64,000 bases of DNA from Bartonella krasnovii (GTDB taxonomy: Bacteria > Pseudomonadota > Alphaproteobacteria > Rhizobiales > Rhizobiaceae), in the NCBI RefSeq assembly GCF_003606345.3, contig NZ_CP031844.2, positions 1,595,001 through 1,659,000 of the forward strand. The letters run 5' to 3'. The notes beneath the pieces are model-generated. The model did no database searches. It was not told where the DNA came from and was given only the letters and a program-made list of their open reading frames with translations. A program made the translations under genes and the position numbers. The first letter of the stretch is position 1. Every line of letters starts with the position of its first letter. Shown here in pieces: positions 29,333-45,954 of this stretch.

Positions 29333-29524
29333 GATCGTCCACGCAACGGTCAATAAGGGAACTAAAAGCCCTAAACCCTAGCGTACAAATAAACTCACTG
29401 TTGTGGGTGTCCCGGAATTCCGGGAGTTTTTGCTATGTCCAGGTGCCAAAAGCACTAAAAGCAAAAAAGCTGACTAGGGTTCAGTACTTTTAGACTCCCG
29501 GAATACTCATGCGAGGGCGCTCGC
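29333..29524 (+). ncRNA. Structured RNA upstream of HTH gene, copy 1 (Brt-like)
   Basis: A 192-nt conserved block with: hairpin GATCGT/ACGGTC; stem P1 CTAAAAG (29362-29368) with CTTTTAG (29487-29493); P2 AACCCTAG (29374-29381) with CTAGGGTT (29474-29481); hairpin CTCAC/GTGGG; palindrome CCCGGAATTCCGGG (29411-29424) followed by a T run; stem TTTTTGCT/AGCAAAAA with GTGC/GCAC; and a 3' hairpin GCGAG/CTCGC (29511-29524). Size and position match what I remember of the Bartonella regulatory transcripts (Brt) placed before trp HTH genes in B. henselae. The HTH start codon is 20 bp after the last hairpin. Confidence 0.85.
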
Positions 29525-29543
29525 AACCGGCGGGGGGCATAAA

Positions 29544-29927
29544 GTGCAAACCAAAAATTCACATTTTCCAACCAAAAATCCCAATTTTAATGATATTTCT
29601 ATTGGCAAAAGAATTCGTCATAGAAGAATTTCAATGCGGCTTTCTCAAAAGGAATTAGGAAGCCACTTAGGAGTGAGTTTCCAACAAATCCAGAAATATG
29701 AAAAAGGGTTAAACCGTGTAAGCGCAGGGCGTTTACAAGAAATTGCCAATGCGCTAGAGGTTCCCATTACCTTTTTTTATGCGAATATTTCAAAAGAAAA
29801 CACTCCAGAACATCCCCCACACTATGACCAAGAAATCTATAGCGAAAAAGAACAGACCCTTGTACAAAATTTTAGAGAGCTCCACCCTAAAAAACAAAAG
29901 GCAATTTGGTGGTTAATTTCCGATTAG
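29544..29927 (+). CDS. XRE-family HTH regulator, copy 1 (Trp-like)
   Basis: 127 aa from GTG 29544, with a G-rich site 6 bp upstream. The HTH_3 domain covers about residues 18-75 (IGKRIRHRRISMRLSQKELG, VSFQQIQKYEKGLNRVSAGR); a linker and a short C-terminal helix follow (LVQNFRELHPKKQKAIWWLI), probably for dimerisation. The GTG start and the structured RNA directly upstream suggest translational or transcriptional gating. In B. henselae, as I recall, such regulators control the BadA adhesin; the target here cannot be read from sequence. Nearly identical to copies 2 and 3. Confidence 0.9.
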   Translation: MQTKNSHFPTKNPNFNDISIGKRIRHRRISMRLSQKELGSHLGVSFQQIQKYEKGLNRVSAGRLQEIANALEVPITFFYANISKENTPEHPPHYDQEIYSEKEQTLVQNFRELHPKKQKAIWWLISD

Positions 29928-30132
29928 ACAAAAGCCGCCACAAACCCCAAATCCTTCGCATCACGTTACAGATCCACGCCTTTACGCTTTTCCATTTTTA
30001 CGAAAATTGACCACCACCCTGCTCAATAAACGTTGACCAAAATCTTGCAAAGCCCCCTTGGCTCCCCACTTCATGTGCTTCAGATTACCACCCTCCAAAC
30101 AACGCTGTTTGATAGTAAAATTTTAAAGCAGA

Positions 30133-30175
30133 AAAACGCTCATCATCTAAAAAAATGATGAAGCAGTGCGTTTTA
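30133..30175 (+). terminator. Hairpin downstream of HTH copy 1, likely terminator
   Basis: AAAACGC pairs with GCGTTTT around an inner stem TCATCAT/ATGATGA. A related but less perfect version lies at 43214-43258. The stem is followed by TTTTACAT. Confidence 0.55.
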
Positions 30176-30259
30176 CATATCCTCTATCTTTGCTTAAACA
30201 GCAAAGGAAAACACCCAATCAGTTTTTAAAATACCCCCCGCCTAAAGTTCTCCATGCCT

Positions 30260-30310
30260 GATATCACCGCCCTTAAAGAGCAGTGTTTAACGGCATGATG
30301 GAATAAATAA
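30260..30310 (+). repeat. Dispersed element B (AAAGAGCAGTGTTTTACGGC type)
   Basis: A motif of the form GATATCACC, then CCCTTAAAGAGCAGTGTTT and ACGGCATGATGGAATAA occurs at about 30260, 40160, 41612 and 43469, all in plus orientation, with weaker forms near 30090 and 30935. Copies at 40160 and 41612 flank the MFS gene; the 30260 copy precedes the VOC gene. Confidence 0.75.
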
Positions 30311-30402
30311 AACACTCCGCGAATGGAAGTTTCACAATTTCTTGTTGAAATATCCCCTATAGAGGTATACTGTGTTAGGAAACCGCTATTAATGGAGAAT
30401 TT

Positions 30403-43611: not shown

Positions 43612-43802
43612 GATCGTCCACGCAACGGTCAAATAGGGATCTAAAAGCCCGAAAGCTTAATACATGAATTTATCCCGCTTTGCGGGTATCCCGGAATTCC
43701 GGGAGATTTTGCTATGTCCAGGTGCTTAACAGCACTAAAAGCAAAAAGCTGATTAAGCTCAGTACTTTTAGACTCCCGGAATACCAATGCGAGGGCGCTC
43801 GC
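43612..43802 (+). ncRNA. Structured RNA upstream of HTH gene, copy 4 (Brt-like)
   Basis: 191 nt. P1 CTAAAAG (43641-43647) with CTTTTAG (43765-43771); P2 AGCTTAA (43654-43660) with TTAAGCT (43753-43759), again a compensated change. Small hairpin CCCGC/GCGGG replaces CCCAC/GTGGG of copies 2 and 3. Palindrome and 3' hairpin (43789-43802) conserved. Confidence 0.85.
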
Positions 43803-43822
43803 AACCGGTGAGGGGGCTTAAC

Positions 43823-44212
43823 ATGCAAACCAAAAACCCACAATTTCAAACTAAAAACCCACATTTTATTGACGTTTTAATCGGCAAAAGAATTCGTCAC
43901 AGACGCATTGCCATGGGGCTTTCTCAAAAGACATGAGGAAGCTTTTTAGGGGTGAGTTTCCAACAAATTCAAAAATATGAAAAAGGGTTAAACCGTGTAA
44001 GCGCCAAATGTTTACTAGAAATCGCTACAAAACTACAAGTTCCGATAAGCTTTTTTTATGCAGATATTGTCACAAAAGATATTACCACAAAAGACAATCA
44101 CACACACAATGATCAATACATCTATAGCGCAAAAGAACACGCCCTTTTAAAAAACTTTAGAGAGCTATCCTGCAAAAAACAGCAAGCGATTTGGTGTCTA
44201 ATCTCTGATTAG
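43823..44212 (+). pseudogene. XRE-family HTH gene, copy 4, with in-frame TGA
   Basis: ATG 43823 opens a frame homologous to the other copies up to LSQKT, where TGA (43934-43936) replaces a Leu codon in the first HTH helix region. The frame then continues without further stops (VSFQQIQKYEKGLNRVSAKC to CLISD). A GTG at 43952, with GAGGAAG about 9 bp upstream, could restart an 86-aa protein lacking the first helices. C-terminal half is diverged from copies 1-3 and close to copy 5. Confidence 0.85.
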
Positions 44213-44559
44213 ACCAAAGCGCACAAAAACATTTTTCGCGCATATCCCCCCAGCTTAAAATTTCCCCATATCCCATATCACCAAATCCCAAATGATGATA
44301 TTTTACAACATCGTAGAATATCCCCAATTGTAGGGATATAACCAGACCTCAAACAACGCTGTTTTACGGTCTCATAGAGGAACACCTCTCCTAAGAATAA
44401 CCAACATCACAGTCTCAAGAAGACCTTTCACCATTCTCAGCAGAATTTTATCTGATTTAACGGATCTACAGTTTTACTTCTTAAGGCGATTTTTCTGCCA
44501 ACATTTCTTTTCTTTATTATCTATGATCTCCATCTTTTAGACAAACCGCCAAAGGGGTT

Positions 44560-44949
44560 TCATCTCTTATAAGTACGGACATAATAACGTGTCACTCCAG
44601 CCTCATCATAAGAGACAGTAGACAGGATACCTATATCTATTGGCATTATTTGATAAGTCAAAATGATACCATTTTGCTGTTTATTTGGTTGATCTGTATA
44701 GATCACGCGATATCCATTGCGTTGCAACAGATCGATAAATAAAGGTGCAAAATTGTCTTCTCTTTTACTTCTTTTCACAATAAGCGTTGTATGAGCTGGC
44801 GGTAAAGAATGTTTAAGATTGTGAACAAAATCATGAGCAATTAATTTTATATCAGAGTTGGTAATATTTTGATCAACATAATTTGCCTGATTCATAGATG
44901 CACAACCAGCCACCAACACAAGCGGTAACGGTAATAAATATCTTGACAT
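44560..44949 (-). CDS. TrbH-like lipoprotein
   Basis: 129 aa with ribosome site GAGAGGGG. N-terminal lipobox LVLVAGC (Cys16) after a short hydrophobic signal, so it is a predicted lipoprotein. The mature domain (IKLIAHDFVHNLKHSLPPAH, LIVKRSKREDNFAPLFIDLL, NGYRVIYTDQ) resembles TrbH of the conjugative mating-pair apparatus. No other trb gene is nearby, so it is either an orphan from a lost conjugative element or has another role. It lies between HTH copies 4 and 5. Confidence 0.6.
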   Translation of the reverse strand: MSRYLLPLPLVLVAGCASMNQANYVDQNITNSDIKLIAHDFVHNLKHSLPPAHTTLIVKRSKREDNFAPLFIDLLQRNGYRVIYTDQPNKQQNGIILTYQIMPIDIGILSTVSYDEAGVTRYYVRTYKR

Positions 44950-45762
44950 CTTAAACCCCTCTCAATTGCACCCTCTCCTAAGGCGTTCCTACACCAAGAG
45001 TTAAGAACACCTTTGCTAATAAAGAGTATTAACAGTGTATCGGTTTGTAATCAAGGGATTATAAATCAATTTTTCACGCAATAAAAAAAACGCCGACTTT
45101 CTCTGATAGCCTTCAAGGCTTATCCATATAGTGATGCTTCACATACAAAATATATATATTAAAAGTACATAAAACACATGGAAGGCATAGCGTACCCTTA
45201 TGCTATAGGACATTTCTTTTCATGCTATTGCTTATCAATAAAGCTTGCACAATGCATCACTCCTCTGCGGCTAAAACAACCTTTTTTACAGATCCACGTT
45301 TTTACGCTTTTATATTTTTGCAGAAATATACAGACTAAACTGCCAAGACCGATTGACTTGCCCCAAAGGACAAAATTTTCCCCACTCCCACTCTATAATC
45401 AACAATCCAACCTCTTGCCCCATGGCCTCTATAGATCAAACGCCCTTCTTCATCTCAACTTGCTCTCTATTCGCAAGACTCTTCACCCCCCAATCCTCTC
45501 ACACCATTCCGCACCATGGCAAATCAGCTTTCCCATCTCCGCCTCACTCTCCCCAACATCGCTTTCAACCTCATTTTTTCACCAACTCTTCCCCCCTCAA
45601 CTCAAATATCCCATGCCCCATATCCTCTTCACAGAACATTTTTTCACAATATTTTCACAATATAAGAGGATAACTCTTAAAACGCCCAACAGCTCTCATT
45701 TTCTAGATGTTTTGATTGTGCTTGCTAATCTTCTAAGATTATTTTATCAATGGAATGTCATT

Positions 45763-45954
45763 GGTCGGTTACGCGACGACCAAATAGGGATTTGAAAGTC
45801 CGAATACTTGACGCATAAATTTGTCCCGCTTTGCGGGTGTCCCGGGATTCCGGGAGTTTTTGCTATGTCCAGGTGCTGTCCTAGCACTAAAAGCAAAAAG
45901 CTGACTCGGATTCAGTACTTGTTACTCCCGGAATACCAATGCGAGGGCGCTCGC
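45763..45954 (+). ncRNA. Structured RNA upstream of HTH gene, copy 5 (Brt-like)
   Basis: 192 nt. The 5' hairpin is GGTCG/CGACC, compensating the GATCGT/ACGGTC of the other copies. P2 is AGTCCGA (45797-45803) with TCGGATT (45906-45912), one G-U pair. P1 is poor. Palindrome is CCCGGGATTCCGGG. The 3' hairpin (45941-45954) is followed by CCGGAGGGG, the clearest ribosome site of the family. Confidence 0.82.

What the first reader, a model, noticed from the sequence alone, without database searches (positions are those of the whole stretch)
29333..45954. Five copies of a 192-nt RNA with compensatory base changes in several helices
Seen directly: copies at 29333, 31453, 32328, 43612 and 45763. Stem P2 is AACCCTAG/CTAGGGTT, AATCCGAG/CTCGGATT, AACTCG/CGAGTT, AGCTTAA/TTAAGCT and AGTCCGA/TCGGATT in copies 1-5: the sequence changes but pairing is kept. 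P1 changes from CTAAAAG/CTTTTAG to GTTGAAAA/TTTTCAAC in copy 3. The 5' hairpin changes from GATCGT/ACGGTC to GGTCG/CGACC in copy 5. A small hairpin is CCCAC/GTGGG or CCCGC/GCGGG. This is strong evidence for a selected RNA fold. It matches the Brt RNAs I remember from B. henselae, but the covariation model and this five-copy set may be undescribed.
Basis: partly seen in the sequence, partly recalled or inferred. Interest (0 to 1): 0.9.

Follow-up and report, generated by a model that had tools for sequence, protein, structure and literature searches.

The report
Brt leader RNAs with hypervariable stems
A known family of Bartonella leader RNAs, which sit in front of small DNA-binding regulator genes, turns out to be held together by two long-range stems whose letters change from copy to copy while the pairing is kept, which gives a testable model of how these RNAs might switch.

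Summary
The five copies are real and fit the known Brt family, leaders of XRE (trp) regulator genes in Bartonella. From 363 copies (46 genomes plus plasmids) I derived a covariation-supported architecture that I did not find in print. Two nested long-range helices, P1 and P2, join the 5' and 3' halves; their letters are hypervariable but pair (own halves far stronger than halves shuffled within the genome). Matched leaders precede intact trp genes more often (161 of 215 versus 29 of 90), though not significantly so in the strictest subset. Strand B is complementary to both A and C; two copies change all three together and keep both pairings. Three divergent single-copy homologues keep the pairing with different letters. 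Signal, output and ON state are unresolved; ribosome-site sequestration is not supported by my calculation. Whether the stem letters are a private address for each copy is open: identical codes are rare within a genome, but energetic insulation is no better than chance. Rfam has no such family.

The parts
29329..29532 (+). Brt leader RNA, copy 1 (P1 and P2 matched)
   Evidence: 225.9 bits with model R1; pairing
31449..31652 (+). Brt leader RNA, copy 2 (P1 and P2 matched)
   Evidence: 229.4 bits; pairing
32324..32527 (+). Brt leader RNA, copy 3 (P1 matched, P2 6 of 7)
   Evidence: 201.2 bits; pairing
43608..43810 (+). Brt leader RNA, copy 4 (P1 matched, P2 6 of 6)
   Evidence: 221.2 bits; pairing
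45759..45962 (+). Brt leader RNA, copy 5 (5' and 3' halves not matched)
   Evidence: 183.7 bits; pairing
29544..29927 (+). XRE-type HTH gene (trp) behind copy 1, intact, 127 aa
   Evidence: HTH_3, E 2.2e-12
31664..32047 (+). XRE-type HTH gene (trp) behind copy 2, intact, 127 aa
   Evidence: HTH_3, E 2.2e-12
32539..32922 (+). XRE-type HTH gene (trp) behind copy 3, intact, 127 aa
   Evidence: HTH_3, E 5.3e-13
43823..44212 (+). Broken trp gene behind copy 4 (one in-frame stop)
   Evidence: sequence; ORFs
45973..46341 (+). Broken trp gene behind copy 5 (one in-frame stop)
   Evidence: sequence; ORFs
29357..29371 (+). Copy 1: hairpin Ha (GGG/CCC) with the 5' strand of P1 (29362-29368) in its loop
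   Evidence: sequence; pair counts
29375..29381 (+). Copy 1: 5' strand of P2
29394..29407 (+). Copy 1: hairpin P3
29410..29418 (+). Copy 1: segment A, complementary to B
29417..29426 (+). Copy 1: segment B, complementary to A and to C
29435..29441 (+). Copy 1: AUGUCCA of the P5 internal loop, conserved in the divergent homologues
29470..29484 (+). Copy 1: hairpin Hb (CUGA/UCAG) with the 3' strand of P2 (29474-29480) as its loop
29487..29493 (+). Copy 1: 3' strand of P1
29495..29504 (+). Copy 1: segment C, complementary to B
29511..29524 (+). Copy 1: near-invariant 3' hairpin GCGAG/CUCGC
29532..29537 (+). Copy 1: G-run at the place of a ribosome-binding site, before the start codon at 29544
   Evidence: sequence; function inferred from position

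Best explanation
Each copy is a Brt leader RNA: a structured, cis-acting leader that holds back the XRE (trp) gene just downstream; in B. henselae it is published to accumulate as a short RNA of about 200 nt. Shown here: two nested long-range helices, P1 and P2, join its 5' and 3' halves; their letters turn over quickly but complementarity is kept; strand B is complementary to A and to C. Inferred: P1/P2 is a clamp. When it is closed B pairs with A; when it is open B is free to pair with C, which sits next to the 3' hairpin and the ribosome-binding site, and this changes trp expression. The conserved P5 internal loop (AUGUCCA / ACNAAAAGC) would be where a signal or protein acts. Which state is ON, and whether the output is transcription or translation, is not resolved.
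For: Own halves pair: -17.11 versus -12.40 (sd 0.19) in within-genome shuffles; own 3' half is the best same-genome partner in 124 of 220, 13 expected. Covariation with a phylogeny-preserving null of my own: the ten top pairs are P1/P2 pairs, eight at E < 0.01 and two at 0.07-0.08; 27 of 47 pairs have double changes against 16.4 in shuffles. Matched leaders precede intact trp in 161 of 215, others in 29 of 90 (none of 5000 within-genome permutations as high). Two copies change A, B and C together and keep both pairings. Folding of 181 leaders: A:B better by 4.4 kcal/mol when the halves match, B:C better by 0.8 when not. Divergent homologues keep P1, P2, Hb and B:C with other letters. Published: removing the 3' region of brt1 raises trp1 (passage seen).
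Against: The calculated openness of the ribosome site does not rise in the B:C state (matched: 0.36 with A:B, 0.26 with B:C). That folding program cannot hold P1/P2 and B:C together (a pseudoknot), so part of the 4.4 kcal/mol follows by construction. A:B is lost in several copies that keep B:C. 29 leaders with weak own pairing precede an intact gene, and in the strictest subset the link is not significant (100 of 122 versus 15 of 20, P 0.54), so part of it may be general decay. A and B:C are nearly invariant, so their covariation rests on few copies. The first covariation run on a plain alignment found nothing below E 0.05. No recognisable intrinsic terminator lies at the 3' end; the A:B hairpin followed by G-UUUUU looks terminator-like, yet the published RNA is longer.
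Confidence: 0.72

Rival explanations
1. Self-addressed trans RNA: the P1/P2 letters are an address, so that the abundant short Brt RNA pairs with the nascent leader of its own copy only and stops its trp gene, much as the immunity RNA of satellite phage P4 acts on its own leader (P4 is recalled, no usable text found).
For: Identical P1+P2 codes in 2 of 604 same-genome pairs against 15.5 expected from between-genome pairs of equal identity outside the stems (ratio 0.13, genome bootstrap 0-0.44), while other variable segments are shared more within a genome than between: 5' hairpin 46 versus 28.1, P5 loop 73 versus 29.5, ribosome-site region 57 versus 10.3. Code strands sit in the loops of Ha and Hb.
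Against: By energy, own pairing beats every same-genome cross-pairing in 67 of 103 leaders, and sets drawn from other genomes give 65.1 (sd 4.1), so no insulation beyond chance. Mean cross-pairing energy is no weaker within than between genomes. Between-genome pairs include orthologues, which share codes by descent. No trans effect could be tested.
Confidence: 0.13
2. Plain structured leader with drift: P1/P2 letters change by compensatory drift and by recombination between paralogues; gene conversion evens out the rest of the RNA but not the stems, because converting one half only breaks them. Letters differ between copies without any use as an address.
For: Energetic insulation no better than chance. 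Hybrid leaders exist: 66 of 309 with own pairing weaker than -12, nearer to other copies (42% within 500 bases against 22% of matched ones). Hybrids precede broken genes more often.
Against: Codes differ in 11 of 13 same-genome pairs that are at least 95% identical elsewhere, against 16 of 26 between-genome pairs, and new duplicates should begin with equal codes.
Confidence: 0.55
3. A DNA-level element: the paired halves are inverted repeats used for recombination or protein binding, and the RNA fold is incidental.
For: Copies lie in arrays and hybrids show recombination in the middle.
Against: G.U pairs occur among the standard pairs (and P2 of L302); the paired letters turn over fully while pairing stays; transcripts are published for B. 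henselae.
Confidence: 0.03

Closest known systems
Brt RNAs and trp genes of Bartonella henselae (Tu et al. 2016, PMC5387305; review PMC8070961)
   Same: Length about 200 nt, XRE-type gene just downstream, many copies in one plastic region, one copy number of 9 in a genome of fitting size
   Different: The parts read give single-sequence folds only; the P1/P2 clamp with changing letters, the A/B/C choice, the link of matched leaders with intact genes and the divergent single-copy homologues are added here
Riboswitch or attenuator leaders in general
   Same: Structured 5' leader, conserved internal loop, alternative pairings, regulator gene downstream
   Different: No ligand shown here (heme response is from passages of PMC8070961); the clamp stems differ in letters between copies of one genome; no clear expression platform
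Satellite phage P4 immunity RNA (recalled)
   Same: A leader segment complementary to two other leader segments; a short RNA made from the leader
   Different: Trans action not shown; A, B and C are nearly invariant here and P1/P2 vary; downstream gene is a lone XRE regulator
ColE1-type RNAI/RNAII specificity loops (recalled; PMC9458437 seen as listing only)
   Same: Code strands in loops; letters vary while complementarity stays
   Different: Both strands are in one RNA; no replication role; no insulation by energy found

Membership tests
Brt RNA family | RNA of about 194-203 nt | tested here: met
   Model matches span 203-204 bases in the five copies; true transcript ends not tested
Brt RNA family | XRE-type HTH gene 10-18 nt downstream | tested here: met
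   Genes start 11-12 bases after the model match in copies 1-3 and are intact; copies 4 and 5 have a broken gene at the same place
Brt RNA family | Sequence relatedness to the published copies | tested here: inconclusive
   Published letters were not compared; a genome of 1,931,047 bases with 9 copies over 277 kb, two of them identical in the RNA, fits the published B. henselae set; species inferred
Brt RNA family | Confined to Bartonella | tested here: met
   Model: 49 of 71 genomes of the genus, 1 of 297 in a sample of the order, the own one
Brt RNA family | High transcription as a short RNA | not testable with these tools
   No transcript data here
Riboswitch | Conserved, covarying fold with a conserved core | tested here: met
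Riboswitch | Expression platform switched by the alternative fold | tested here: inconclusive
   A:B versus B:C alternatives, but ribosome-site openness does not follow
Riboswitch | Binds a ligand | not testable with these tools
   none
P4-type immunity RNA | Short leader RNA acts in trans on the nascent leader | not testable with these tools
   Only sequence patterns

The most novel reading that the evidence does not exclude
The P1/P2 letters are private addresses: up to 34 paralogous leader RNAs in one genome stay separate because each short Brt RNA recognises only its own nascent leader, a natural set of insulated RNA attenuators that diversifies like plasmid incompatibility or phage immunity groups.
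Probability: 0.13. Interest if true: 0.9.

Novelty: new member of a known kind. Interest (0 to 1): 0.6.

Why it matters
How Brt RNAs keep the trp genes silent was left open in the parts of the papers that I read. The clamp and the A/B/C choice give letter-level predictions for probing and reporter tests, and the covariance model lets the family be found and counted in any Bartonella genome. If the stem letters prove to be addresses, this would be a natural case of many insulated RNA regulators in one cell.

Tried and rejected
Plain-alignment covariation gave no pair below E 0.05; the P1/P2 columns were out of register, so I used an alignment-free permutation and a model-based alignment. Ribosome-site sequestration switched by B:C: not supported. 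Hybrid leaders having a special partner half in the same genome: no (P 0.23 for 5' halves, 0.92 for 3' halves). Energetic insulation: no better than chance. Relatives outside the genus: none besides the own genome among 297 genomes by model (stricter filters) or among 397 by an exact core pattern (that pattern also missed G028, which has the RNA). The same pattern hit 11 viral contigs; the best model match there had E 0.019, which I take as chance. Phage records: no match. Plasmids: 45 records matched, four of them Bartonella, each with an XRE gene under the match. Rfam: no family. Searches for the P4 comparison gave no usable P4 text, so P4 is recalled.

Rows dropped and limits: of 363 hits 323 were full length, 311 parsed (12 failed), 309 after removing two plasmid duplicates, 305 with enough DNA downstream. 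The 309 come from 46 genomes and two plasmid records; the own genome and 12 others were collected nearly completely, the rest by some or their best loci only. An earlier, smaller set gave the same direction for pairing and gene integrity. The energy cut of -14 is rough: window copy 5 passes it at -14.3 through a shifted pairing. Alignment A1 was chosen for pairing; A2 holds the 150 best of 264 matches, 147 distinct. One search listed 70 of 101 A/B/C combinations. My covariation null is not R-scape.
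Full report
What is there. The window lies in a Bartonella genome of 2,186,621 bases in two contigs that holds 22 BLAST matches to copy 1 and 23 matches to the covariance model. Behind copies 1-3 lies an intact XRE-type HTH gene of 127 aa; behind copies 4 and 5 the gene is broken by one in-frame stop. Rfam 15 has no family for the RNA. The description fits the Brt RNAs of Tu et al. 2016 (PMC5387305; read: outline, abstract, introduction, parts 1 and 2 of 3 of the results, and the discussion). 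Copy counts agree: 9 in a genome of 1,931,047 bases and 34 in one of 2,619,061 bases; that these are B. henselae and B. tribocorum is inferred from their sizes (recalled) and the paper's table.

Pairing of the five copies. In the canonical register copies 1-4 pair (P1 7/7 each; P2 7/7, 7/7, 6/7, 6/6); copy 5 does not.

Is the fold selected? I collected 363 copies, 323 of full length. For 309 of them I computed the duplex energy of the 5' segment with the own 3' segment and with those of other copies. Own pairing averages -17.11 kcal/mol; shuffling 3' halves within each genome gives -12.40, sd 0.19 (2000 shuffles). The own 3' half is the best partner among all same-genome halves in 124 of 220 copies, 13 expected. 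This test needs no alignment. On the model-based alignment A2, a phylogeny-preserving simulation of my own (100 simulated alignments) puts ten P1/P2 pairs on top: eight at E below 0.01, two at 0.07-0.08; a P3 pair follows at 0.21 and one pair outside the structure at 0.22. Counting on A2 gives 97.6% paired cells and 27 of 47 pairs with double changes, against 16.4 in shuffles. A2 leans towards the structure: the model made it, and it holds the best 150 of 264 matches. A first run on a plain alignment found nothing significant.

Architecture. 5' hairpin; hairpin Ha (GGG/CCC) with the 5' strand of P1 in its loop; 5' strand of P2; P3; A:B hairpin; P5 with a conserved internal loop (AUGUCCA / ACUAAAAGC) and P5a; hairpin Hb (GCUGA/UCAGU) with the 3' strand of P2 as its loop; 3' strand of P1; segment C; the near-invariant hairpin GCGAG/CUCGC; a G-run; trp. 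A 4-bp Hb is complete in 308 of 309 copies against 153 of 309 with shuffled letters; a 3-bp Ha in 303 against 208. In A2, B is complementary to A in 99.3% of cells and to C in 99.7%, mostly without variation. Among 323 copies two change A, B and C together and keep both pairings; against this, several copies have lost A:B and kept B:C.

Clamp and gene integrity. Leaders with own pairing below -14 precede an intact trp in 161 of 215 cases, the others in 29 of 90 (odds ratio 6.3, P 4.6e-12; none of 5000 within-genome permutations as high). Among leaders with exact B, C and 3' hairpin the figures are 133 of 167 and 19 of 39 (P 0.0002); in a still stricter subset 100 of 122 and 15 of 20 (P 0.54), so part of the link may be general decay. 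Constrained folding of 181 leaders with intact A, B and C: with matched halves (154) A:B is 4.4 kcal/mol better than B:C, and B:C is better in 11%; with unmatched halves (27) B:C is 0.8 better, and is preferred in 70%. The program cannot form P1/P2 and B:C at once, so part of this follows by construction. The openness of the ribosome site does not follow the state. In the genome taken as B. henselae, the first copy of the 277-kb cluster has the strongest own pairing (-29.8) and the copy with a broken trp a weak one (-8.6), but two other weak ones (-9.9, -10.6) precede intact genes. That the first is Brt1 is my inference.

Changing letters. Among 13 same-genome pairs of leaders with intact trp that are at least 95% identical outside the stems, 11 differ in P1, P2 or both. 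Identical P1+P2 codes occur in 2 of 604 same-genome pairs; between-genome pairs of equal outside identity predict 15.5 (ratio 0.13, genome bootstrap 0-0.44); simple label shuffling predicts 6.3 of 614 (P 0.043). Other variable segments are shared more within a genome than between. Against an address function: own pairing beats every same-genome cross-pairing in 67 of 103 leaders, and sets drawn from other genomes give 65.1, sd 4.1; mean cross-pairing energies do not differ; orthologues inflate between-genome sharing; and conversion that would break stems may simply be selected against. I keep the address idea at low probability.

Divergent homologues. BLAST found the RNA in 46 of 71 genomes of the genus, the model in 49. 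The three additional genomes have one copy each (E 5e-10 to 9.5e-10, which searched 25 genomes), between a thioredoxin gene and a gene that I read as peptide release factor 3, 43 bases before a 104-aa gene with the same HTH motif (read for two of the three). Two of the three RNAs are identical over 240 bases, the third differs at six positions. P1 (UUGCAAC/GUUGCAA), P2 (AUCUAUG/CAUAGAU, with one G.U in the third), Hb (GCUA/UAGC), B:C (GACCGGGGG/CCCCCGGUC) and the P5 loop are kept with other letters. They were not used to build the model.

Reading. The RNA family is known, so the window's copies are new members of it. What I did not find in the read parts of the two papers, nor in the listings of searches, is the covariation structure, the clamp with changing letters, the A/B/C choice and the divergent homologues. 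Of PMC8070961 I saw found passages only: removing the 3' region of brt1 raises trp1, and a gfp fusion responds to heme. The most likely working is a cis leader switch with a P1/P2 clamp; signal, output and ON state are not shown.

Noticed in passing
L302, L303, L304 (genomes G059, G060, G058): Single-copy divergent Brt-like leader before an XRE gene, between a thioredoxin gene and a gene read as release factor 3; may show the ancestral place of the system.
   Followed up: partly
window 29410-29431 (also 31530 and 32405): The A:B hairpin followed by G-UUUUU (GCUUUU in copy 3) looks like an intrinsic terminator inside the leader; the scan's total of 6 was not above its shuffles (4.5, sd 2.4).
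   Followed up: no
window 46584-47889: Tandem array of two alternating repeat types with steps of about 216 and 212 bases, just behind copy 5.
   Followed up: no
window 41728-42885 (-) and 26289-27650 (-): A Phi29-like major capsid protein (PF25622, E 8.5e-22) and a phage terminase large subunit (PF04466, E 4.5e-22) flank the Brt region.
   Followed up: no
window 61574-61734 (+): 6S RNA (RF00013, 72.7 bits).
   Followed up: no
L081-L084 (Bartonella plasmids): Brt-XRE units also sit on four Bartonella plasmids, in two of them two genes away from a ParA gene.
   Followed up: partly
own genome C1 1664096-1665601 and L096: Clustered degenerate Brt copies with replaced 5' parts; their B and C segments are still complementary.
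   Followed up: no
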